DNA of 64,000 nucleotides from Fibrobacter succinogenes (GCA_902800345.1 CADCDO010000013.1:1-64000); one strand, 5' to 3'. Shown: positions 1,537 to 60,933, counted from the first letter of the stretch. Made by a program: numbers and translations. The notes: generated from the letters alone by a model not told the origin.

Positions 1537-3822
1537 CTAGAAATCGAAATTCAGAGACACCATTCCGTAGAGGTCCCTGTAATCTTCGGATTCGTTGTCC
1601 GGACGGTGGTTGATGAACGCACCAAACGTCCATTCGGTACTGAGTTTTTCCGTCAACTGGAACTTGAGCCCCAGAGAGAAATCCAAATCCATTTCCATTT
1701 CATCGACATTATGGCCATCTTCTTCGCGGCTCATAAAGTTCTGGCGCACATTTGCGTGCAGCAGAAGATCCAAGAATCCCGGATTCAACTGGACGGACGC
1801 ATTTTCCATGAGGTTCCACTCAAACTCGCTCATGTCGTTGCGGTTATACGACCTGTACCTAGGCGTAACAGAAACCGTATTTTGCAAACGGTCGAGTTTC
1901 GTCGTCAACGACAACGGATAACGCATTTCAAAGTAGTCGCTCCCATGGAAGCGATAACCCAAAATTCCATAAGTTTCGTCAGAAAAATCAAAACCATCCA
2001 GCAAGTCATCTTGATTGAACTTCGAAAGATCCGTGCGGAAAGTCCATACGCCACCGACTTTCAAAACATTCTTCGGAAGCCTGAACGTGGCACCCAGCTC
2101 AAACGTATGCTTCATCAAGCGCTCGTCAAACTGAGTCGCCAAATATTCTTCTTTCTGCAGGGCGGCATACTTTGCCCAACGCGCAGAGTCAATCTCGATA
2201 GAGCCGTCCTCCGTTTCCACCTCGATGGAACTCTTGCCTTTTTGCTTCGCGAACCAGGAATCCGAATAAATTCCCGACGAAACGAAGTAATTCCCGTGAA
2301 GTCTCTGGGACGTACTGCGCGTGCGGTAATTGAGCGCATAGCGGGCCACAAGTTCCACGGAATCGCGCACCTTGAACTTGCTCTTCAAATCGAAATCATG
2401 AATGTAAAGCGTTCTGGACGGGTCCTGTTCATGTTTCTTAAGCCAGTCATCGTCGGCTCCCGGTACAAGGCCGAGCTTGGAACCCTCGGCAAAGCCAATG
2501 ACGTTATAAGCATCTCCGCTGCCCGAAGCATTTTCGATGTTCAATTCGTAGCCCACATTCAACAGCCAAGGGTCCGATATCTTTTGCTCCAACTTGGCAC
2601 CCAATTGGCGGGAATTCTGCAACATGTCCGGAGAGCCCGCACTGTAATAATTGCGGCCTACAAAACGGAAATACGCATCGATTGTCGTCGAATTTTTCTT
2701 CCAGTTGTAAGAACCTGCCAACGCAAGATTCTGTGCGGTCCAGTCGGTCGGGTCGTCATTACTTTGATCATGATGCTTTTTCAAAGCATCACTCGCCTGT
2801 TTCAAAATATTCTTCAGTTCACTACGCATCTCGTCAACCGACATGTCCGTATTGTCACCAAAAATAAGTTCCAGTTCATCACGGCTCATGCGATTTACAA
2901 GCGATGAATTGTTCATCAGGCGACGGAGCTGCGCAAAATTCGACACGTCAAGACCGGCTTCTTCAAAGACAGCATTCACGGCACGGTGCGCAACGACGTT
3001 TACCGTATCGGCGCCACCAAAACCAAGCTGGAAGTTATACGTTCCGCGGCCCCCCAGGACCTCGCCGCCGAATTCTCCAAAGAAAGTCCTCGAAGAAAAC
3101 ATCGGGTTCGAGAGATTGACGTTTTTGGACGTTCCATCGCGCAAATACGGGTCTTCCAGATAATCCTTGCTGCCTATAAATCCAAGCGTGGCGTTGAACG
3201 TTTTTGAGGCATTCCAAAGAACCTTTCCACCCAAGGCCATCTTCTGCGCTTCGACTTCGTCAAGACCAATATACATGTTGTACTGGTCCGGATCTTTTTC
3301 GCCCGGCAACTTCGGAGCAGAGGCTTCACCGCCGAACACGCTCAGAACAAACATGGGGCTCGGGTCATGGTTCAAATTTAAATTCAAGTCATAGCTTAAA
3401 CCCAGCAAGTCGATGCTCGACAAGTACAGGTCTCCCCCCGTGATGGTCATGTCGCCAAGAATAACCTTCTGGAAGCGGTCTTCGTACAGAGCCTGTACAA
3501 ACTTAGGATCAAAGCGGTTCCAGTTATCGCTAGAGGCATCTATCGTAAACTGGATTTTCTGTCCCGTTGGGGATTCCGCTACGACAAAAGCATTCCAAGC
3601 ACCAAAAATTCCAGGAACCTGGAAATAGTTTCTGTACTTTTTCCCAGGCTGGATTGTATCGTTGCCATTCACGAAAATATCATAAGTCTCATTCTTTTTC
3701 GTAACAACAGAATGATAGCCAAATTCAGCATTTACAGAACCATTGACAGACCATGCAGAATCGGACTGGGCCAAAGCCGGCGCCACCAAAATAGAAGCTA
3801 GAGCGAGTCCTCTAAATATCAT
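1537..3822 (-). CDS. Predicted outer-membrane beta-barrel protein
   Basis: A 761-residue protein with a signal peptide ([19 protein letters not shown]) and no internal transmembrane helices. It shows long runs of alternating polar and hydrophobic residues, frequent aromatic ends of strands and a terminal ...[10 protein letters not shown], where a final Phe is typical of barrels inserted by BamA. I recognise no named family. The start overlaps the stop of the FecR-domain gene by 4 bp (ATGA), showing translational coupling. The neighbour suggests the two act together in the cell envelope. A large periplasmic or extracellular insert (about residues 280-340) is helix- and charge-rich. Confidence 0.75.
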
Positions 3823-25120: not shown

Positions 25121-25393
25121 TTATAAGATAAAGGCGCTCCTCGTAAGCGGAAATGACAAGTACAAGATGGAGGTGCACGATTTCCAAGTCACCCCCATCA
25201 TCCGACGTCCCCCAAAATAAATGCAGTCAAGACGAACGCCGCGACAAAAAAGCGAACAAGGCGAACGAAATGCAAGAATTCATTTTTGCACTTCTGAGCC
25301 GCAGAGCAGAGGTCCGTGGCGTAAAAGGCCTGCATTTTGTCATGGCTAAGCCGAAGAGCATTAAACTTGTAGAATTCTTCCTGAAAAAACAAT

Positions 25394-39350: not shown

Positions 39351-40853
39351 CTATTGCTTTATGCGTTCAACAGCTTCTTTGAACTGTGCAGGCTCTTGCA
39401 AGAGCGATATGACCACCCAGCCGTCTTCATCGAAATCAAAGAAAAAACCCGGCTGCACAAGCACGTGCTTTTCACGGAGCAAGCGGAGCGTGAGTTCTTC
39501 GTCGTCTTCGCCTAGACGCACAACCGCATACCAGCCGCCAAGAACTTCAGGGCAGTATTTAGACGGGAACGTTTCGCGAAGCGTTTGCCAGTTTGTCAGG
39601 AGACGTTCGCGGACGCGCGATTCGTAATCAGTGGTGTGTTTAAGCAGAGAGGCGCCGAGGGCCTGTGCGGGTGCCGAGACACTCAGGTAAGCGTCTTCGA
39701 CGAATTCGAGAGCCGCGCGGATTTCTTCGAAACGTTCACGCGGGGCATAAAATGCCATCCAGCCGAGCTTGAGCTGCGGAGAGCCCACAGCTTTGCTGAG
39801 GCCGTTCAGCCAGAAAATCGGGCACTTCGGGCCGTCTTCCGGGAGATTGATAAAATCGCCCCCGCCTGCATCCCAAAGATCCTTCGATGCAGAGTTATCG
39901 TAACCGAATCCTTTATGGATTCCCTCCCCAATCGTGCTACGCACTCCAGGGTCGAGGATGACATCCGCACTTTCGTCTCTCGTCTGTAGCGAGCCTGCGA
40001 GCGTTCTCTCGTCTAATACATATTGCCAAGTGCGCGAGACTTTATCCGAAAAAGCGTAATCGCCAAAGACTTCATCGACGACGAGAATCATGTTGTTCTC
40101 TTCGCAGAAGCGGACGGCGGCGTTCCATTCTTCACGCGAGACGCAGTGACCAGTCGGATTATGCGGAGAAACGAGCAGCAAAATTTTTGAACGCTCGGGA
40201 GCGGCGAGCAAACTGTCAGAATCCAGAACAAAGCGGAAAGAAGTTTCCGTTTTAGATTGCTTCGCACTATGTGCTCGCAATGACGTACTAGGCGAATGTT
40301 GCGACAAACTACTTGCAGGCTGGCATAACTGAGCCGACGAATCATGCGCTCCGCTCAGAATGACGCTGTTTTTCGCAGCAGATTTGTCATTGCGAGAGTG
40401 CGCAGCACCCGAAGCAATCTCACGTTTCAACTTCAAAAAATACGGAGCGCATTCCAAATGTTCGAGCTGCGCAAGCGTATCCAAAAGCGGGTAGCCAGGC
40501 ATCGGCGTCAGGATCACATCGCCCGGATCGCAGAACGTTTTGAACAGCACAGAATAGGCTTCGCTCGTACTTGCGGTAAGAATTATCTGCCCTGCGGTAA
40601 AATTGCCACCGCGTTCGCGGTAATACTCCACCACCGCTTCGCGAGCCGATTTCCAACCAGCAGCATCCGGATTCCAGTTGCCAAAATCTTTGCGACCTTC
40701 ATCGATAGCCGTATTCAAGTCTACAGACAGTCCCGCCTTCACAGGCGAACTTACCGTCATGTCGATAAACGGAGCAGATTCAGCCTTCGCGCGTTCCAGT
40801 TCAACAAAGAACGGTGACGGAGAAAGGTCTTTCGGCAAGCGGGACGAGAGCAT
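39351..40853 (-). CDS. Class I/II aminotransferase carrying in-frame repeat insertions
   Basis: 500 residues; fold-type I PLP aminotransferases are normally about 390-430. Recognisable blocks: N-W-N-P-D-A-A-G-W near residue 60, S-T-S-E-A-Y-S-V-L-F, T-P-M-P-G-Y-P-L-L, S-P-H-N-P-T-G-H near 228, V-D-E-V-F-G-D-Y and the PLP lysine in L-N-G-L-S-K-A-V-G near 360. Two segments are foreign to the family: residues about 143-203 (Ser/Ala/His-rich) and about 283-335. At DNA level both consist of dispersed repeat words (see 40254-40420). They lie between conserved blocks, so the protein may still fold with surface loops. Substrate cannot be told. Confidence 0.85.
   Translation of the reverse strand: MLSSRLPKDLSPSPFFVELERAKAESAPFIDMTVSSPVKAGLSVDLNTAIDEGRKDFGNWNPDAAGWKSAREAVVEYYRERGGNFTAGQIILTASTSEAYSVLFKTFCDPGDVILTPMPGYPLLDTLAQLEHLECAPYFLKLKREIASGAAHSRNDKSAAKNSVILSGAHDSSAQLCQPASSLSQHSPSTSLRAHSAKQSKTETSFRFVLDSDSLLAAPERSKILLLVSPHNPTGHCVSREEWNAAVRFCEENNMILVVDEVFGDYAFSDKVSRTWQYVLDERTLAGSLQTRDESADVILDPGVRSTIGEGIHKGFGYDNSASKDLWDAGGGDFINLPEDGPKCPIFWLNGLSKAVGSPQLKLGWMAFYAPRERFEEIRAALEFVEDAYLSVSAPAQALGASLLKHTTDYESRVRERLLTNWQTLRETFPSKYCPEVLGGWYAVVRLGEDDEELTLRLLREKHVLVQPGFFFDFDEDGWVVISLLQEPAQFKEAVERIKQ
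40254..40420. repeat. Inverted pair of REP-like words inside the aminotransferase gene
   Basis: GATTGCTTCG...CGCAATGACG at 40255-40285 and its inverted counterpart GTCATTGCGAG...GAAGCAATC at 40386-40420, flanking about 100 bp that includes a GCTCAGAATGACG word. A third copy is at 42028-42064. The arrangement resembles paired REP/BIME elements but lies in frame in a coding gene. Confidence 0.75.
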
Positions 40854-54938: not shown

Positions 54939-57900
54939 ATGATTTTACTCGTCGCCGAAAAGCCTTCCGTTGCCAATCAGCATTACAAGCCGATGCTGGA
55001 GCGTATTGAGGGTGAAAAGTTTACGCAAGGCGACGGGTGCCTAATCGGCAAGAACCATTGCATCACATGGTGCGTGGGTCACTTGATTACGCTTGCGCCG
55101 TTGGACGCCTACCCCGGTTTCGAGGGAGGTTGGCGGCTTTCGAACTTGCCGCTTTTGCCCGAAAAATTCAAGTTGATGGAAATCGAGAGCACGCGAAAGC
55201 AGCTCGCGGTTGTGCGTGACATGATGGCAAGAGCGGACGTTCTTGTGAACGGCGCGGACGCGGGCCGTGAAGGTAATTTGATTTTTGACTTGATTCTCGA
55301 CTACACGCCGGACTTCCGCAAGAAGCAAATCAAGCGCTTGTGGGTGAACAGCTATGTGGCGAAGGATTTGGACAAGGCTTGGAAGAATCTGGAAGATGCT
55401 ACGGAGCGTTTGAACTTGAGCTATGCGGCAAGGCTCCGCCAGCGTGCCGACTGGATGGTCGGGCTGAATGCGACTCGTGCATACACGCTCACAGCCGGGC
55501 GCGGAAAGATGATTTCGGTGGGGCGCGTGCAAACGCCGACGCTGAATCTGGTCGTGGAGCGCGATGCGATTGTCGAGCAGTTCAAGGAACTGTTTTATTA
55601 CAGCGTTGTAGGAACGTGGAAAGGATATCAGGCGCAGTTACTAGACGATAGACGAGAGACGAAAGACGAAAGAGGGCAACGTCATCCTGAACAACGTGAA
55701 GGATCCAGTGAAGTAATAAAAGCCGAAGCCGGAACGGAGTCCGGCATGACAGCAGAAGCGAAGGTCGCGACAGAGGCGAAGGTCGCGACAGACAAGCAAA
55801 GCAATCTCAAAGTTGCGATTTTCGAGAAAGAAGAGCCGGCGCAGGCTGTTATAGACAAATGCTCGCCGCCGGAAGAAGCGACGATTGCAAAGATTGACAT
55901 CCAGCAGAAAAAGCAGTTCCCGCAGAAGCCTTTCGACTTGACGGAACTGCAAAAAGAAGGCAACAAGCGTTTTAAATACAGCGCCCAACAAGTTCTGGAT
56001 TGCGCACAAAACTTGTACGAAAAGAAGTTGCTCACCTACCCGCGTACGGACTCGCAATATCTGCCGGACACGATGCAGCAAGAGGCATACGCACTTGCAC
56101 AAAGGCTCGCTACGCCGCAAGAAAAATCCGTCATGCGCGACGGCAATGAGAACTTTGTCTTCATCAACTCCAGTAAAGTCACAGACCACTTTGCCATCAT
56201 CCCCACAGGAGAAGAACCGCAAAATCTCCCTGAGATGGAAGAGAATATCTACAAGCTCGCCAAGGAACGCTTTGTGCAGGCATGGCTTAAGCCGTATGTC
56301 TGGAGCGAGATGGAAGTGACATTGCACAGCAATGTCATCCTGAGTGGCGAAGCCGCGAAGGATCCAGAACTGTTCCGTTTAAAGCTCAAGCGGAACGAGG
56401 ATTTAGGGTTCCGGGCACTCGCAAAAGAGACGAAAGACGAAAGACGAAAGACGAAAGGAAAGAAAAACGACAACGACACGGCGGTCGATGGCAAGGGCGA
56501 TGGGGATGATATCACGAACATCGTCGAGACGTTCCCGGAATGGAATGTTGGCGACCACGCGCCTTTCGACAGCCTGGAACTGCAAAAGAAAAAGAAAAGC
56601 AAACCCAAGTACTTTACCGAAGCGACGCTCCTTGCCGCAATGAAAACGGCGGGCAAGCAAATCGAAAACGAAGAACTTGCCGAAGCCATGAAGGAACGCG
56701 GTCTCGGAACGCCGGCCACGCAGGCAGGCATCATCGAAACACTCAAAAAACGCGGATTCATCGAAGCGCAAAAGAATTACCTTGTCAGTACCCAGCGCGG
56801 TCGCGAAGTCATCGCGCTCATGGACGAAAAAGTCAAATCGCCCGAAATGACCGGCGAATGGGAGTTCAAGCTTTCGCAAGTCGAGAAAGGGAAGCTTACG
56901 CCGATTGAATTCCGCGACGGCATCGTGAATTATGTCAAGGAACTCTTCGAACACCTGCGTCAAAAATACGGCAGCCAGTTCGAACGCGAAACCGTCACCG
57001 ATGCGATTCCTTGCCCGAAATGTTCCAGCCCGCTCGAAATTGCGCCGTGGGGCTATGTCTGCAAAAATGAAGAATGCGGTTTCAAGGCAGGCCACACCAT
57101 TGCAGGCCGCACACTGAGCCACGCCGAAATGCGGACACTCCTCAGAACAGGCAAGTCCGATTTGCTCAGCGGATTCAAGAGCAAAAAAGGAACGACATTC
57201 AGCGCCACGCTCACATTAGGCGATGACGGCAACATCGGCTTTGAATTCTCCGACGACGCACGCGCCAAAACGCCGACCAATTACAAGTGCCCCAAGTGCG
57301 GCAAAATGCTTTTAGATTCCGGGAACCGCCTCATCTGCGAAGGGAACGACGTCACCACATCGAACAACGAAAATGGCGATCCAACGCTTACGCCGGAAAC
57401 AGCCCCGACTTGCGACTTCGTTTTCTACAAGACGATTGCCGGGCACGTCATGAACGACGAAGAAATTGCGGAACTTTTCAACAACGGCACGACGCAAATC
57501 ATCAGCGGATTCTTGACCAAGAAAGGCACGACCTTCAACGCCAAAGTCGTTTGGGACAAAGATTTCAAGGCGACATTCGCGTTCGAGAACGACGGACATT
57601 TCCACGGCACCGAAACCAAGTTCAGCTGTCCTCTCTGCAAAAAGAAACTCGAAGAAAACAAGAACGCCATTTTCTGCCCAGCATGTAACTTCACCTTGTT
57701 CAAATCCGTTGCTGGCAAAAAGCTCCGCGTGGCAGACATCAAGGCTCTCCTTACCGACGGTAAGACCGAACTTTTGACCGGCTTCAAGAGCAAGAAGGGA
57801 ACTGAATTCGATGCCTATGTAAAGCTCGGTGCCGATGGTCACACAAGCTTTGAATTCGTACACCGCGACCTCCCCTGCCCTTGCTGCGGCGACCAGCTCC

Positions 57901-58184: not shown

Positions 58185-58593
58185 GGAGATTCCGCCCCGG
58201 AACTTGAATCCGCTCGACCACTTTATAAAGCGGGAACTCAAGATTCGTTGTTATGGGCGTTACGTCGATGACATGTATCTTATCCATAAAGACAAGAACG
58301 TGCTGAAACAAGCCATCACGCAAATAAGAGATTTTTTAAAGAACAAACTAAAACTCACTTTGCACCCGAAAAAGATTTACCTACAGCCCATCACAAATGG
58401 ATTCCTGTTCTTGGGGGCATTCATTCTTCCCCATAGGATTTACCCCGGAAGGCGTATTGTTGGGAATTTTAGGCAAGCTGTTTTTAAACCTGATAAAGAT
58501 ACAGCTAAACAAGCAAACAGGATTACAAGCTACAAGGGGCTATTTTCGCATTTCGACTGCTACAAAATGACAAAAAAGTGGACTGGTGATTAA
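58185..58593 (+). pseudogene. DGR-type reverse transcriptase, C-terminal remnant
   Basis: From TTG 58204 the frame encodes about 130 residues: N-P-L-D-H-F-I-K-R-E-L, the catalytic G-R-Y-V-D-D-M motif near residue 20, L-K-L-T-L-H-P-K-K-I-Y-L-Q, F-L-F-L-G-A and S-Y-K-G-L-F-S-H-F at the end. This is palm motif 5 through the thumb of group-II-like RTs, with the H-P-K-K-x-Y-L-Q and F-L-G-A blocks typical of DGR RTs (about 300-400 aa when complete). The N-terminal motifs, including the first catalytic Asp, are missing; only I-P-P-R-N-L remains of the preceding G-I-P-I-G-N-L block, directly after the topB stop. Non-functional as it stands. Confidence 0.88.
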
Positions 58594-58637
58594 AAATTTT
58601 CAGACCGGCTCTGTCGGTCCGTATTTTTTTTTTGGGG

Positions 58638-58753
58638 GGGCGGCTTCGCCGCCCTTGCTTGGGCATGGCGGGCTACGCTCCGCCTTGCCCTTTTTTGATG
58701 GGGCTTGGCCTTTGGCCTAGCCCCGTTGCCTACCGCCCTTGGCGGTTGGCAAC
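58638..58753. repeat. Array of four GC-rich hairpins
   Basis: H1 58638-58654 (GGGCGGC-TTC-GCCGCCC), H2 58661-58690, H3 58700-58724 (GGGGCTTGGCC-TTT-GGCCTAGCCCC) and H4 58725-58753. H2, H3 and H4 each have one T-T mismatch within otherwise perfect stems. They lie between the RT remnant and the FISUMP gene and continue into the double hairpin at 58762. Confidence 0.85.
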
Positions 58754-58761
58754 CCAGTCGT

Positions 58762-58838
58762 TGCACTACTTCGTAGTGCACGACATTCGGCTCGGTCATG
58801 GCAATTCAAGCACGCTTGATTGCCGCGACTCTCGCCTT
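58762..58838. other. Double-hairpin element, copy 1 (downstream of FISUMP variable region)
   Basis: Hairpin a TGCACTAC-TTC-GTAGTGCA (58762-58780), 19 nt ending CGGCTCGGTCAT, hairpin b GGCAATTCAAGC-AC-GCTTGATTGCC with one bulged T (58800-58824), then CGCGACTCTCGCCTT. Located just past the FISUMP stop codon, where DGR targets often carry a hairpin that assists cDNA-primed homing. Copy 2 at 60820-60898 has the same layout with changed stems. Confidence 0.8.
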
Positions 58839-58839
58839 G

Positions 58840-59616
58840 CTAGTCTTTGACGCAACGAACAGAAAACCCGAGGCTCTCGTCGTAGTCGTACAGGGTTGCA
58901 TCGTCGTCGCCGTAGTCCAAGCACATGCGGTACGCGCGGTTGCTATTGTACTCCGTAGAACTCCAGAAGTACGCATTGTAGCCCCCCCCGCCGTAATCCC
59001 CATCGTCGAGCCTGTAGCCGGCAGGCAACGCCGAGAACGAGTAATCATCTGTGCTGTTGCCACTTTTCTTCCAGCCACTTGTCGATTCGAGTTTTGTTCC
59101 CGCTGTACTGGAACCACCGACAGCAGTGAACAAAGTTTCAAATTCGGCTTTTGTTGGTAAATGCCAACCACTAGGACAAGCTGATATCGCAGCGTCCCAC
59201 GTGTAAAGGCGACCGTATTTGGTGCAGTTGGATGCGTTTTCGTTGTAGCAGTAACTGTTCGCCGTTTCGTAATTTAAGTTCTGAGCCATCCACGTCTGAG
59301 AGCCTATAGTAACGGTCTTGTAGGAATGACCGTCGCGGGAGTCCGTGAGAAAGCCTTCGACATCGCTTTGAGTGGCTGAGACCACCTTCACATCATCATC
59401 TTCGACCCATTTACCATTTTGACAAATGTACCCCTGCTCCTGATCTGCCACGTATGCAGTTTTGCCATCACGCTTCTCGGCACAAGATGGCAACTCGCTG
59501 TACGTCCGCACATCCATATCGGCATTGCTTTGCGGACTCGCCCCATTACCGGAATCGCCACATGCGACAAACATAAGAGCTACTGAAGATATCAAGACAA
59601 GAGATAAACGATTCAT
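58840..59616 (-). CDS. FISUMP-domain lipoprotein, probable DGR target
   Basis: 258 residues from ATG 59616 (GGAAGGA upstream). Lipobox F-V-A-C (Cys20). A short stem leads to the FISUMP domain (about 90-258): Y-K-T-V-T-I-G-S-Q-T-W-M-A-Q-N-L-N-Y, C-P-S-G-W-H-L-P, G-T-K-L-E-S-T-S-G-W, then the variable end A-Y-F-W-S-S-T-E ... S-V-R-C-V-K-D. The last 59 codons are rich in Tyr, Asp, Asn, Gly and Ser encoded by NNY codons. Expected on the outer surface as a binding protein with a diversified face. The double hairpin, hairpin array and RT remnant follow directly. Confidence 0.9.
   Translation of the reverse strand: MNRLSLVLISSVALMFVACGDSGNGASPQSNADMDVRTYSELPSCAEKRDGKTAYVADQEQGYICQNGKWVEDDDVKVVSATQSDVEGFLTDSRDGHSYKTVTIGSQTWMAQNLNYETANSYCYNENASNCTKYGRLYTWDAAISACPSGWHLPTKAEFETLFTAVGGSSTAGTKLESTSGWKKSGNSTDDYSFSALPAGYRLDDGDYGGGGYNAYFWSSTEYNSNRAYRMCLDYGDDDATLYDYDESLGFSVRCVKD
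58843..59019 (-). other. Variable region of the FISUMP lipoprotein
   Basis: 59 codons aligned without gaps to 40894-41070. Identical codons include the run for F-W-S-S-T-E; differing codons include TAC/AGC, AAC/CGC, CGC/TAC, GAC/ACC, TAC/GGC, AGC/ATC and CTC/TAC, all ending in a pyrimidine. A run of eight C on the plus strand (58981-58989 area) encodes Gly codons here. Confidence 0.75.
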
Positions 59617-59793
59617 ATATCCTTCCAAACTTTTTTTCTTGTAACGAAATATAATAAAGAAAATGAGTATTTGCAAAAATTCCATTTTTGTCAACCATAG
59701 ATTGCAAAATGAAAAATTTTCTTGAAAAGTTCGTTTTTTCCAAATTCGTTTGCTATATTGTTCACGGCTAGCAGATGGCTGGCCATGCTCAAT

Positions 59794-59837
59794 AAAGAGC
59801 CGTTTTCTATATCAAAATAGGAACGGCTCTTTTTTGT
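59794..59837 (+). terminator. Terminator-like hairpin in the leader of the Rpn gene
   Basis: AAAGAGCCGTT/AACGGCTCTTTTTT hairpin, 38 nt upstream of the Rpn start codon and about 40 nt after a TGCTATATTG -10-like box. Transcripts from that box would end here as a roughly 70-nt RNA, or read through into the nuclease gene; an attenuator is possible. Confidence 0.6.
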
Positions 59838-59874
59838 TTTGCCAAAGAACGTACAACATAAGCAAAGGAGAAAA

Positions 59875-60669
59875 ATGGAAACAAACCACATCCCGTTCGA
59901 AGATCTTCCCATCACGAATCGTTTCATGTTCGCGCTCGTGTTCAGCCACAAGCATATCGCTAAGCCATTCCTCGAAGCGCTCCTCGGAATCAAAATCTTT
60001 GATTTGCAGGAACCAGAGCCGGAAAAATCCACCGAAAACAGTCCCTTCAGCAAGGGAGTCCGTTATGACGTATTCGTAAAAGAACGGGAACCCAAGGGGG
60101 AAATTCTCCGTGTGTTTGATATCGAGATGCAAATAGAAGATACTCACGAATTACCGAAGCGAACCCGCTACTATCAAGCTCTATGTGACTCCGAGGCCCT
60201 GAATAAAGGGGAATCCTACCGCAACCTCAAAGAACAGTACATCATATTCATTTGCCCCGACGACATTTTCAAGCAGGGACGTGCAGTTTACAGGTTCAAG
60301 AACCTTGAAATCGGACACCCAGAACATGAATTGGGCGATCTATGCTTCAAGAATTTTTATATATTCAATGAGTACAAGGATGTCGCCGAGAAATCCATCA
60401 AGGAATACCTTGAATACTTTGCAACCAACAAGGCGACCTCACAGGAAACAAAGAACATCGAACGCCAGCGGCAATGGTATCTGTCGGACAATGAAACAAG
60501 GAAGCGCTATATGACTTGGCAACAGGAATTGGATGACATGGTATATGAAGAACGCGAACGCACTAAGGCAGCTGAAAAACGTGCCAACGAAGAGAAGTCT
60601 CGTGCAGACGAAGCGGAATCTCGAGCTGATAAGTACGAGAAGATGCTCAGGGAACACGGACTGCTTTAA
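59875..60669 (+). CDS. Rpn-family PD-(D/E)XK nuclease
   Basis: 264 residues from ATG 59875 (AAGGAG upstream). N-terminal block P-I-T-N-R-F-M-F-A-L-V-F, then G-V-R-Y-D-V-F-V and F-D-I-E-M-Q near residue 80, the D...E-x-Q active site pattern of the Rpn/PDDEXK transposase-like family. The C-terminal 50 residues are a coiled coil (E-R-T-K-A-A-E-K-R-A-N-E-E-K). Family members are recombination-promoting nucleases often linked to phage defence or toxicity. A different branch from the Rpn protein at 47211. Preceded by a terminator-like leader that may limit expression. Confidence 0.85.
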   Translation: METNHIPFEDLPITNRFMFALVFSHKHIAKPFLEALLGIKIFDLQEPEPEKSTENSPFSKGVRYDVFVKEREPKGEILRVFDIEMQIEDTHELPKRTRYYQALCDSEALNKGESYRNLKEQYIIFICPDDIFKQGRAVYRFKNLEIGHPEHELGDLCFKNFYIFNEYKDVAEKSIKEYLEYFATNKATSQETKNIERQRQWYLSDNETRKRYMTWQQELDDMVYEERERTKAAEKRANEEKSRADEAESRADKYEKMLREHGLL

Positions 60670-60819
60670 TTCCGCAATTTTCGTCTTTCGTCCCGAAACT
60701 TGACAGACTCAGAGCATTGCAATCTGGAATGACAGAGCAAACAAAGCCTACTATTGCCATAGGCTTATACTGAATTGCAGACCTTTCCATTTGGAGGCTC
60801 TCCCACATTTTACTATCTT

Positions 60820-60898
60820 TGCACTCCTGAGGAGTGCATATAGCACGGCTCGGTCATGACAATTCAATCTAGCGATTGATTGTCGCGACTCTCGCCTT
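60820..60898. other. Double-hairpin element, copy 2 (before sufB)
   Basis: Hairpin a TGCACTCCT-G-AGGAGTGCA (60820-60838), 19 nt ending CGGCTCGGTCAT, hairpin b GACAATTCAATC-TAGC-GATTGATTGTC (60858-60884), then CGCGACTCTCGCCTT. Stems differ from copy 1 by paired changes while linkers are conserved. No FISUMP gene adjoins it; sufB begins 36 nt later. Confidence 0.8.
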
Positions 60899-60933
60899 AA
60901 GCTATATTTGCTCCCGATTAATACGGGTATAAA

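What the first reader, a model, noticed from the sequence alone, without database searches (positions are those of the whole stretch)
58762..60898. Covarying double-hairpin element in two copies 2 kb apart
Copies at 58762-58838 and 60820-60898 share hairpin a, an exactly 19-nt linker containing CGGCTCGGTCAT, hairpin b with the same single bulged T, and a CGCGACTCTCGCCTT tail. Stems differ by paired changes (GGCAA/TTGCC against GACAA/TTGTC; CAAGC/GCTTG against CAATC/GATTG; hairpin a inner pairs also swap). Preserved pairing with changed sequence indicates selection on structure. Copy 1 sits directly past a DGR-like variable region, where known DGRs carry a hairpin needed for homing; copy 2 is an orphan before sufB and may mark a lost target gene.
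Basis: partly seen in the sequence, partly recalled or inferred. Interest (0 to 1): 0.75.

Follow-up and report, generated by a model that had tools for sequence, protein, structure and literature searches.

The report
Fibrobacter's gene-invading mobile double hairpin
The two look-alike hairpin pairs are copies of a small jumping DNA element found by the dozen in every Fibrobacter genome tested, which lands at promoters, after genes and even inside essential genes, and in some insertions appears to build its stems from copies of the site it lands in.

Summary
In detail: both copies exist and their stems covary. They are not a DGR homing signal. A covariance model finds 143-162 copies in this genome and 8-111 in each of 24 other Fibrobacter genomes, but essentially none outside the genus (15 of 16 had no match). 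Only the C-terminal scrap of one RT exists in this genome, 29 of 41 Fibrobacter genomes have no RVT_1 match, and only 4 of ~160 copies abut a FISUMP gene. Across 140 distinct copies all stems covary (749 double-changed cells against 226 in shuffles), while the eight most conserved bases are exactly the eight non-Watson-Crick positions (TC/TC and AT/GC). The element is mobile. Copy 2 is an 89-bp insertion at the sufB promoter, present in G000 and G019, absent from five other close relatives, with an exact 9-bp target duplication (TTTGCACTC) in G019. Other insertions sit in frame inside TruB, UvrB, MnmE, RNase HII, GluQRS, FeoB and RluB, or at the tmRNA 5' end with an 11-bp duplication; PGI is frame-shifted. 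In several insertions the arms are an inverted plus a direct copy of the target. Best reading: a Fibrobacter-restricted, non-autonomous palindromic insertion element that works like Rickettsia palindromic elements. Mobilising enzyme unknown.

The parts
58747..58850 (+). Copy 1: full unit (left arm, hairpin a, core, right arm running into the FISUMP 3' end)
   Evidence: R1 68.2 bits
58762..58780 (+). Copy 1 hairpin a (TGCACTACTTCGTAGTGCA)
   Evidence: sequence
58789..58799 (+). Copy 1 conserved 5' core GGCTCGGTCAT
58800..58824 (+). Copy 1 hairpin b (variable stem, bulged T)
58825..58838 (+). Copy 1 conserved 3' core GCGACTCTCGCCTT
60818..60915 (+). Copy 2: full insertion at the sufB promoter. 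Left repeat TTTGCACTC 60818-60826; right repeat 60907-60915 is decayed here (TTTGCTCCC) but exact in G019
   Evidence: occupied in G000 and G019, empty in G004, G014, G001, G006, G043:
60820..60838 (+). Copy 2 hairpin a; its 5' arm lies in the duplicated target sequence
60838..60844 (+). Copy 2 outer arm ATATAGC, pairs with GCTATAT 60901-60907
60847..60857 (+). Copy 2 conserved 5' core GGCTCGGTCAT
60858..60884 (+). Copy 2 hairpin b
60885..60898 (+). Copy 2 conserved 3' core GCGACTCTCGCCTT
60901..60907 (+). Copy 2 outer arm GCTATAT
40278..40347 (-). Third copy, diverged, in frame in an aminotransferase class I/II ORF
25246..25312 (-). Fourth copy, weak and decayed (17.7 bits)

Best explanation
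The double hairpin is one copy of a Fibrobacter-restricted, non-autonomous mobile palindromic element of about 75-90 bp. SHOWN: high copy number, restriction to the genus, occupied and empty orthologous sites, a clean target duplication at sufB, and in-frame insertion into conserved proteins. SHOWN: its only rigid features are eight bases at two non-Watson-Crick 2x2 internal loops (TC/TC and AT/GC, with one adjacent bulged base) in a helix whose paired positions nearly all covary. INFERRED: the folded single strand, more probably the strand carrying tandem GA/GA, is recognised by a structure-specific enzyme supplied in trans and inserted. SHOWN at a few sites, generality inferred: the target is duplicated directly and partly copied in inverted orientation, giving target - loop - inverted target - core - target. 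That accounts for arms that pair yet differ between loci. Copies with settled arms (classes A and B) then spread with their arms, often sitting inside older palindromic repeats. The transcript preferentially carries the GA strand, which suggests tolerance or use as an mRNA hairpin.
For: Copy number and range: 143 matches in own genome, 162 in fetched regions, 8-111 in each of 24 other genus genomes and none in 15 of 16 outside it; the exact-pattern scan of 84,980 species genomes shows only Fibrobacter/Fibrobacteraceae/Fibrobacterales records among the rows listed (scan truncated), plus one 3.8-kb contig titled Bacteroidales. Mobility: sufB, exact 9-bp duplication, net 89 bp; PGI empty in 5 relatives; TruB occupied in 2, other repeats at the same point in others, empty in several; UvrB, GluQRS, GT polymorphic; L287 and L277 sites; tmRNA 5' end with GGGGGTGCTTT duplicated. 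In-ORF insertions with Pfam domains on both sides. Left and right flanks are direct repeats more often than swapped pairs (score >=20: 18% against 3.5%). Structure. Gene stops abut the right edge 18 times, the left edge 2 times.
Against: No mobilising enzyme was identified: Y1_Tnp is absent from the own genome and from 29/41 genomes in the genus, and no protein family recurrently flanks the element. A clean exact duplication was seen in only one occupied/empty pair; PGI and L287 junctions are imprecise. Class A units show no duplication. Orientation bias towards transcription could also reflect selection on an RNA role.
Confidence: 0.85

Rival explanations
1. A DGR target-site hairpin/cruciform needed for mutagenic homing into FISUMP variable regions.
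For: Copy 1 abuts a FISUMP stop codon and is near an RT scrap. Genus RTs carry TR-like sequence ending FSVR(L)VKD. Abutment on FISUMP is enriched (p about 0.003, estimated gene totals).
Against: About 97% of copies are away from FISUMP; most genomes with copies have no RT match. Hairpin shape is wrong: published DGR hairpins have 7-10 bp GC-rich stems and a 4-nt GRNA loop (PMC3240598); copy 1 hairpin a on the FISUMP sense strand is TGCACTAC-GAA-GTAGTGCA (3-nt loop, half A/T).
Confidence: 0.04
2. A cis-acting structured RNA (3'-UTR stabiliser, attenuator or riboregulator) maintained by selection.
For: Strong covariation with invariant non-canonical bases. The GA strand is the more stable RNA in 99/120, is preferred in transcripts, and gene stops abut one edge 18:2.
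Against: Copies are polymorphic between close relatives, occur inside ORFs and at promoters, are attached to unrelated genes, and match no Rfam family at gathering cut-off. This explains maintenance of some copies, not the family.
Confidence: 0.1
3. Ordinary REP/RAYT system: repeats moved by a Y1 (HUH) transposase.
For: Imperfect palindrome with conserved mismatches, dispersed and intergenic, also in genes, orientation bias.
Against: No Y1_Tnp in the own genome nor in 29/41 genus genomes; no GTAG tag at the stem foot; target duplications are not expected of IS200/IS605-type transposition (general knowledge).
Confidence: 0.06
4. Passive palindromes: covariation is produced by replication template switching (quasi-palindrome correction), not by mobility or selection.
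For: Any imperfect DNA palindrome can self-correct; the arms vary freely.
Against: The eight mismatched positions resist correction in >95% of 140 copies; empty and occupied sites with a clean 9-bp duplication show insertion.
Confidence: 0.05

Closest known systems
Rickettsia palindromic elements, RPE (Ogata et al. 2000, cited in PMC10969869)
   Same: Many copies of a ~75-150 bp palindrome, both intergenic and inserted in frame in unrelated housekeeping genes; polymorphic between species.
   Different: Different phylum and sequence; invariant mismatched internal loops; arms matching target copies at some sites; per-copy stem turnover. No relation by sequence was tested.
CGTC-tagged REPs (PMC3733652, 2013)
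   Same: Short dispersed palindromes without a dedicated transposase, also found inside repair and replication genes, sometimes sitting within larger palindromes.
   Different: CGTC REPs are 8-9 bp stems with 4-5 nt loops and a CGTC tag; this unit is longer, bipartite and has no fixed tag. Simple palindromes that look like the CGTC type occur in Fibrobacter, and class A units sit inside one.
GTAG REPs and RAYTs
   Same: Imperfect palindromes with conserved mismatches; extragenic bias.
   Different: No GTAG foot, no Y1 transposase in this genome.
Bacterial MITEs (RUP, NEMIS, ERIC)
   Same: Small, non-autonomous, hairpin-forming, target duplication.
   Different: MITE arms are fixed terminal inverted repeats recognised by a parent transposase; here outer arms vary freely between copies and at some sites match the target.
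DGR target hairpin (PMC3240598, 2011)
   Same: A hairpin whose structure rather than stem sequence matters; copy 1 lies 3' of a probable DGR target gene.
   Different: Genome-wide distribution, loop and stem rules not met, present in genomes without RT matches.

Membership tests
DGR target-site hairpin | Lies just 3' of a variable region of a DGR target gene | tested here: not met
   4 of ~160 copies abut a FISUMP gene
DGR target-site hairpin | 7-10 bp GC-rich stem with 4-nt GRNA loop | tested here: not met
   Copy 1 sense strand TGCACTAC-GAA-GTAGTGCA and hairpin b against PMC3240598
DGR target-site hairpin | Genome encodes a DGR RT | tested here: not met
   Only an RVT_1 scrap below cut-off in own genome; 29/41 genus genomes no match
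Rickettsia palindromic elements | In-frame insertion in unrelated conserved genes as well as intergenic | tested here: met
   TruB, UvrB, MnmE, RNase HII, GluQRS, FeoB, RluB and others; PGI is an exception
Rickettsia palindromic elements | Sequence homology to an RPE family | not tested
   No RPE consensus was searched; conserved core pattern not seen outside Fibrobacterales titles except one contig titled Bacteroidales (truncated)
MITE | Target-site duplication on insertion | tested here: met
   TTTGCACTC exact at sufB in G019; GGGGGTGCTTT at tmRNA; 15-bp repeat at L277. Not seen for class A or PGI
MITE | Fixed terminal inverted repeats shared by copies and by a parent transposon | tested here: not met
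   Outer arms vary freely, some unique to their locus; no flanked protein family
GTAG REP / RAYT | Y1 transposase in the genome | tested here: not met
   control genomes positive in the same search
CGTC REP | Constant CGTC tag at one end of an 8-9 bp stem with 4-5 nt loop | tested here: not met
   No constant tag: right ends read TTTG, GTTGTCGTC, GTTGTCTTC, TTTGAC
Integron attC site | Conserved GTT/AAC of R boxes in the outer arms | tested here: not met
   No conserved GTT/AAC in the outer-arm columns of A2
Known Rfam RNA | Match at gathering score | tested here: not met
   Only tRNAs and SRP RNA in the window

The most novel reading that the evidence does not exclude
A mobile element that carries no arms of its own: only two mismatched internal-loop motifs are inherited, and the stems around them are rebuilt at each insertion by copying the target once in inverted and once in direct orientation (target - loop - inverted target - core - target). 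This would be a fold-back, template-switching mode of transposition not matching known DDE, HUH, tyrosine-recombinase or RT routes. Support: sufB, L287, L277, L241, L247 and tmRNA sites, with arms at L287, L277 and both L247 copies no closer to any other own-genome copy than shuffled arms are.
Probability: 0.28. Interest if true: 0.87.

Novelty: new variant of a known kind. Interest (0 to 1): 0.6.

Why it matters
Palindromic elements that invade coding sequence are best known from Rickettsia, and how they move is open. A free-living, abundant fibre-degrading gut genus with up to well over a hundred copies per genome, many polymorphic between close species, offers tractable material. The eight invariant mismatched bases give a precise handle for finding the protein that recognises the fold. 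The in-frame insertions in TruB, MnmE, UvrB and others show continuing remodelling of core enzymes. The family also warns that covarying double hairpins near DGR targets need not be DGR parts.

Tried and rejected
(1) DGR link: RT and FISUMP searches and positions. Two RT loci of relatives have elements nearby (L298 just 3' of the RT; L299 two copies ~0.6-0.9 kb away, other orientation); with one copy per 30-100 kb this is only slightly above expectation. (2) RAYT/IS200. (3) A dedicated flanking gene family: clustering 462 predicted proteins near copies; the largest cluster (10) has only 2 members within 300 nt. (4) Replication-strand bias: element orientation is unrelated to GC skew (71:75) but related to gene strand (57:89, p 0.01). 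(5) Phage carriage: no match to the core pattern in 2.9 million viral contigs. (6) k-turn: the GA/GA tandem is not next to a 3-nt bulge, so the motif does not fit. (8) Literature: no paper in the held library was found to describe the family in Fibrobacter.

Full report
CHECK OF THE OBSERVATION. Both copies are as described. Written on the window + strand the unit is: left flank l - loop - middle arm m - GGC TC G GTC AT - hairpin b - GC GAC N C TC GCC TT - right arm r. Hairpin a is l with m; the outer stem is m with r.

HOW COMMON IT IS. A BLAST-type search with copy 1 finds 29 places in the window's own genome. A covariance model (R1) from 26 of these copies finds 143 matches at E up to 1, nearly all far below 0.01; 162 appear in the fetched regions at E up to 0.01. 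All 24 other genomes of the genus that were searched carry 8 to 111 copies; 15 of 16 genomes outside the genus have none and one has a single marginal match. An exact-pattern scan of 84,980 species genomes gave 111 stretches before stopping at its limit; the rows listed are Fibrobacter or Fibrobacteraceae/Fibrobacterales records except one 3.8-kb contig titled Bacteroidales, which I did not examine. No viral contig holds the pattern.

STRUCTURE. On 26 copies the named structure has 89% paired cells and 100 double-changed cells against 33 in shuffles; sliding the partner by any 1-3 columns destroys it. On 150 matches (140 distinct) the figures are 88% paired and 749 double-changed cells against 226, but that alignment was fitted to the model. 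Another pair that was not in the model, columns 22-92, switches G-C to A-T (121 against 13, two A-C, p 2e-16). The eight most conserved columns are T20 C21 A26 T27 G85 C86 T93 C94, exactly the two 2x2 non-Watson-Crick loops; T27-G85 is a wobble. On the opposite strand TC/TC reads as tandem GA/GA, and that strand is the more stable RNA in 99 of 120 copies. The bulge next to it is A, T or G but almost never C (1 of 140).

WHERE THE COPIES LIE. Most are intergenic; 21 of 162 overlap predicted ORFs. Several of these are in-frame insertions inside recognisable proteins: TruB, FeoB, RNase HII, UvrB just before its UVR motif, MnmE, a GluQRS-like synthetase, an RluB-like pseudouridine synthase, a SNF2-like helicase, a glycosyltransferase and an aminotransferase. 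Nine of them were scanned with Pfam, and for most the models match on both sides of, or across, the insert (the helicase was not run). PGI carries a 74-bp insert that breaks the frame. Gene stops lie at the right edge of the element 18 times and at the left edge 2 times; the majority gene strand is opposed to the element orientation 89 to 57 (p 0.01), whereas GC skew shows no relation. Transcripts therefore tend to carry the GA strand.

IT MOVES. Orthologous sites were compared with relatives. At sufB (copy 2), G004 and G014 read ACTATCTTTGCACTCGTTTAAAGC, while G019 reads ACTATC-TTTGCACTC-[element]-TTTGCACTC-GTTTAAAGC: a net insertion of 89 bp with an exact 9-bp duplication. The own genome has the same insertion with a decayed right repeat. 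G001, G006 and G043 also lack it. At TruB the element is in G000 and G004; G001, G006, G019, G054 and G020 carry other sequence at that point, in most of them recognisable palindromic or GACGAGAG-type repeats, and G014, G003, G010, G045, G012 and G043 have little or nothing there. UvrB carries it in G000, G001 and G019 but not in G004, G014, G006 or G043; in GluQRS and GT some relatives have instead a simple palindrome (ACTGGAT-CCTTCG...CAGGATGAC type) at the place where others have the element inside it. At the L287 site four relatives are empty; at L277, G001 and G019 are empty and G043 and G006 occupied. In the own genome a copy sits exactly at the 5' end of the tmRNA gene, with GGGGGTGCTTT on both sides.

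WHERE THE ARMS COME FROM. In copy 2 and similar copies (L200, L242, L247, L287, L277, L241) the left flank and right arm are direct repeats of the target, exact or approximate, and the middle arm is partly their inverse: target - loop - inverted target - core - target. Genome-wide, own left/right flanks match directly at score 20 or more in 18% of 148 copies against 3.5% for swapped pairs; tandem arrays of elements contribute to this. Arms at L287, L277 and two L247 copies have no closer relative among the own copies than shuffled arms do, whereas typical copies do (median 30 against 14). So two populations seem to exist: insertions with site-specific arms, and families (class A, class B) that spread with arms. 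The alternative that an arm guides insertion to matching targets fits sufB, L200 and L242, which share GTGCATATAGC, about as well; I cannot separate the two.

DGR QUESTION. Fibrobacter does appear to have DGRs aimed at FISUMP: RTs of relatives are preceded by a TR-like stretch (NSNNNNKTNNAFSVRLVKD in L299; a similar one in another frame in L298). But the own genome keeps only an RVT_1 scrap of 57 model positions, 29 of 41 genus genomes have no RVT_1 match, and FISUMP, with 169 domain matches, abuts only four copies: on C13 (copy 1), C88, C20 and C19. With estimated gene totals that is an enrichment of about 8-fold (p about 0.003), possibly because FISUMP genes sit in repeat-rich variable intervals such as topB-sufB. 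DGR hairpins as published have 4-nt GRNA loops and GC-rich stems; copy 1 does not.

MECHANISM. Inferred: a structure-specific protein recognises the folded single strand by its two mismatched loops. No Y1 transposase is in the genome, and no gene family recurrently flanks copies. A PDDEXK_2 (Rpn-type) nuclease gene lies between the two copies; this is a lead without a test.

KNOWN AND NEW. In behaviour it is closest to Rickettsia palindromic elements, which integrate in frame in unrelated genes (PMC10969869), and to CGTC REPs, which lack a dedicated transposase and sometimes sit within larger palindromes (PMC3733652). It is not filed as a member of either, because sequence relation to RPEs was not tested and the CGTC tag is not met. 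No paper on it was found in the held library, which covers open-licence papers only.

Noticed in passing
window 58204-58593 (+): C-terminal scrap of a reverse transcriptase directly after topB, the only RVT_1 match in the genome; topB and sufB are ~0.27 kb apart in G001, so this interval has gained a 2.7-kb block here.
   Followed up: partly
window 58620-58760: Four further GC-rich palindromes in a row between the RT scrap and copy 1 (GGGCGGCTTCGCCGCCC and others).
   Followed up: no
window 55643-55672 and 56414-56457, inside topB: GACGAAAGACGAAAG tandem repeats, with a translated palindrome QRHPEQREGSS after the first, appear inside the topoisomerase ORF; the same repeat types occur inside TruB, UvrB and FeoB.
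   Followed up: partly
L298 and L299: RTs of other Fibrobacter carry a TR-like stretch at their N-terminal side ending in FSVR(L)VKD, matching the FISUMP C-terminus: a probable FISUMP-targeting DGR in the genus.
   Followed up: partly
L247:4696-5100: A copy of the element sits at the 5' end of the tmRNA gene, duplicating its first 11 bases.
   Followed up: partly
L281 (G000 contig 73), about 2970-3600: The glucose-6-phosphate isomerase gene is frame-shifted by a 74-bp insertion absent from five relatives.
   Followed up: partly
window 59839-60669 (+): Rpn-type PDDEXK_2 nuclease gene between the two copies; candidate mobilising factor, not tested.
   Followed up: no
L093: The one listed genome-contig hit titled outside Fibrobacterales (Bacteroidales MAG, 3.8 kb contig) may be a mis-binned Fibrobacter contig.
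   Followed up: no
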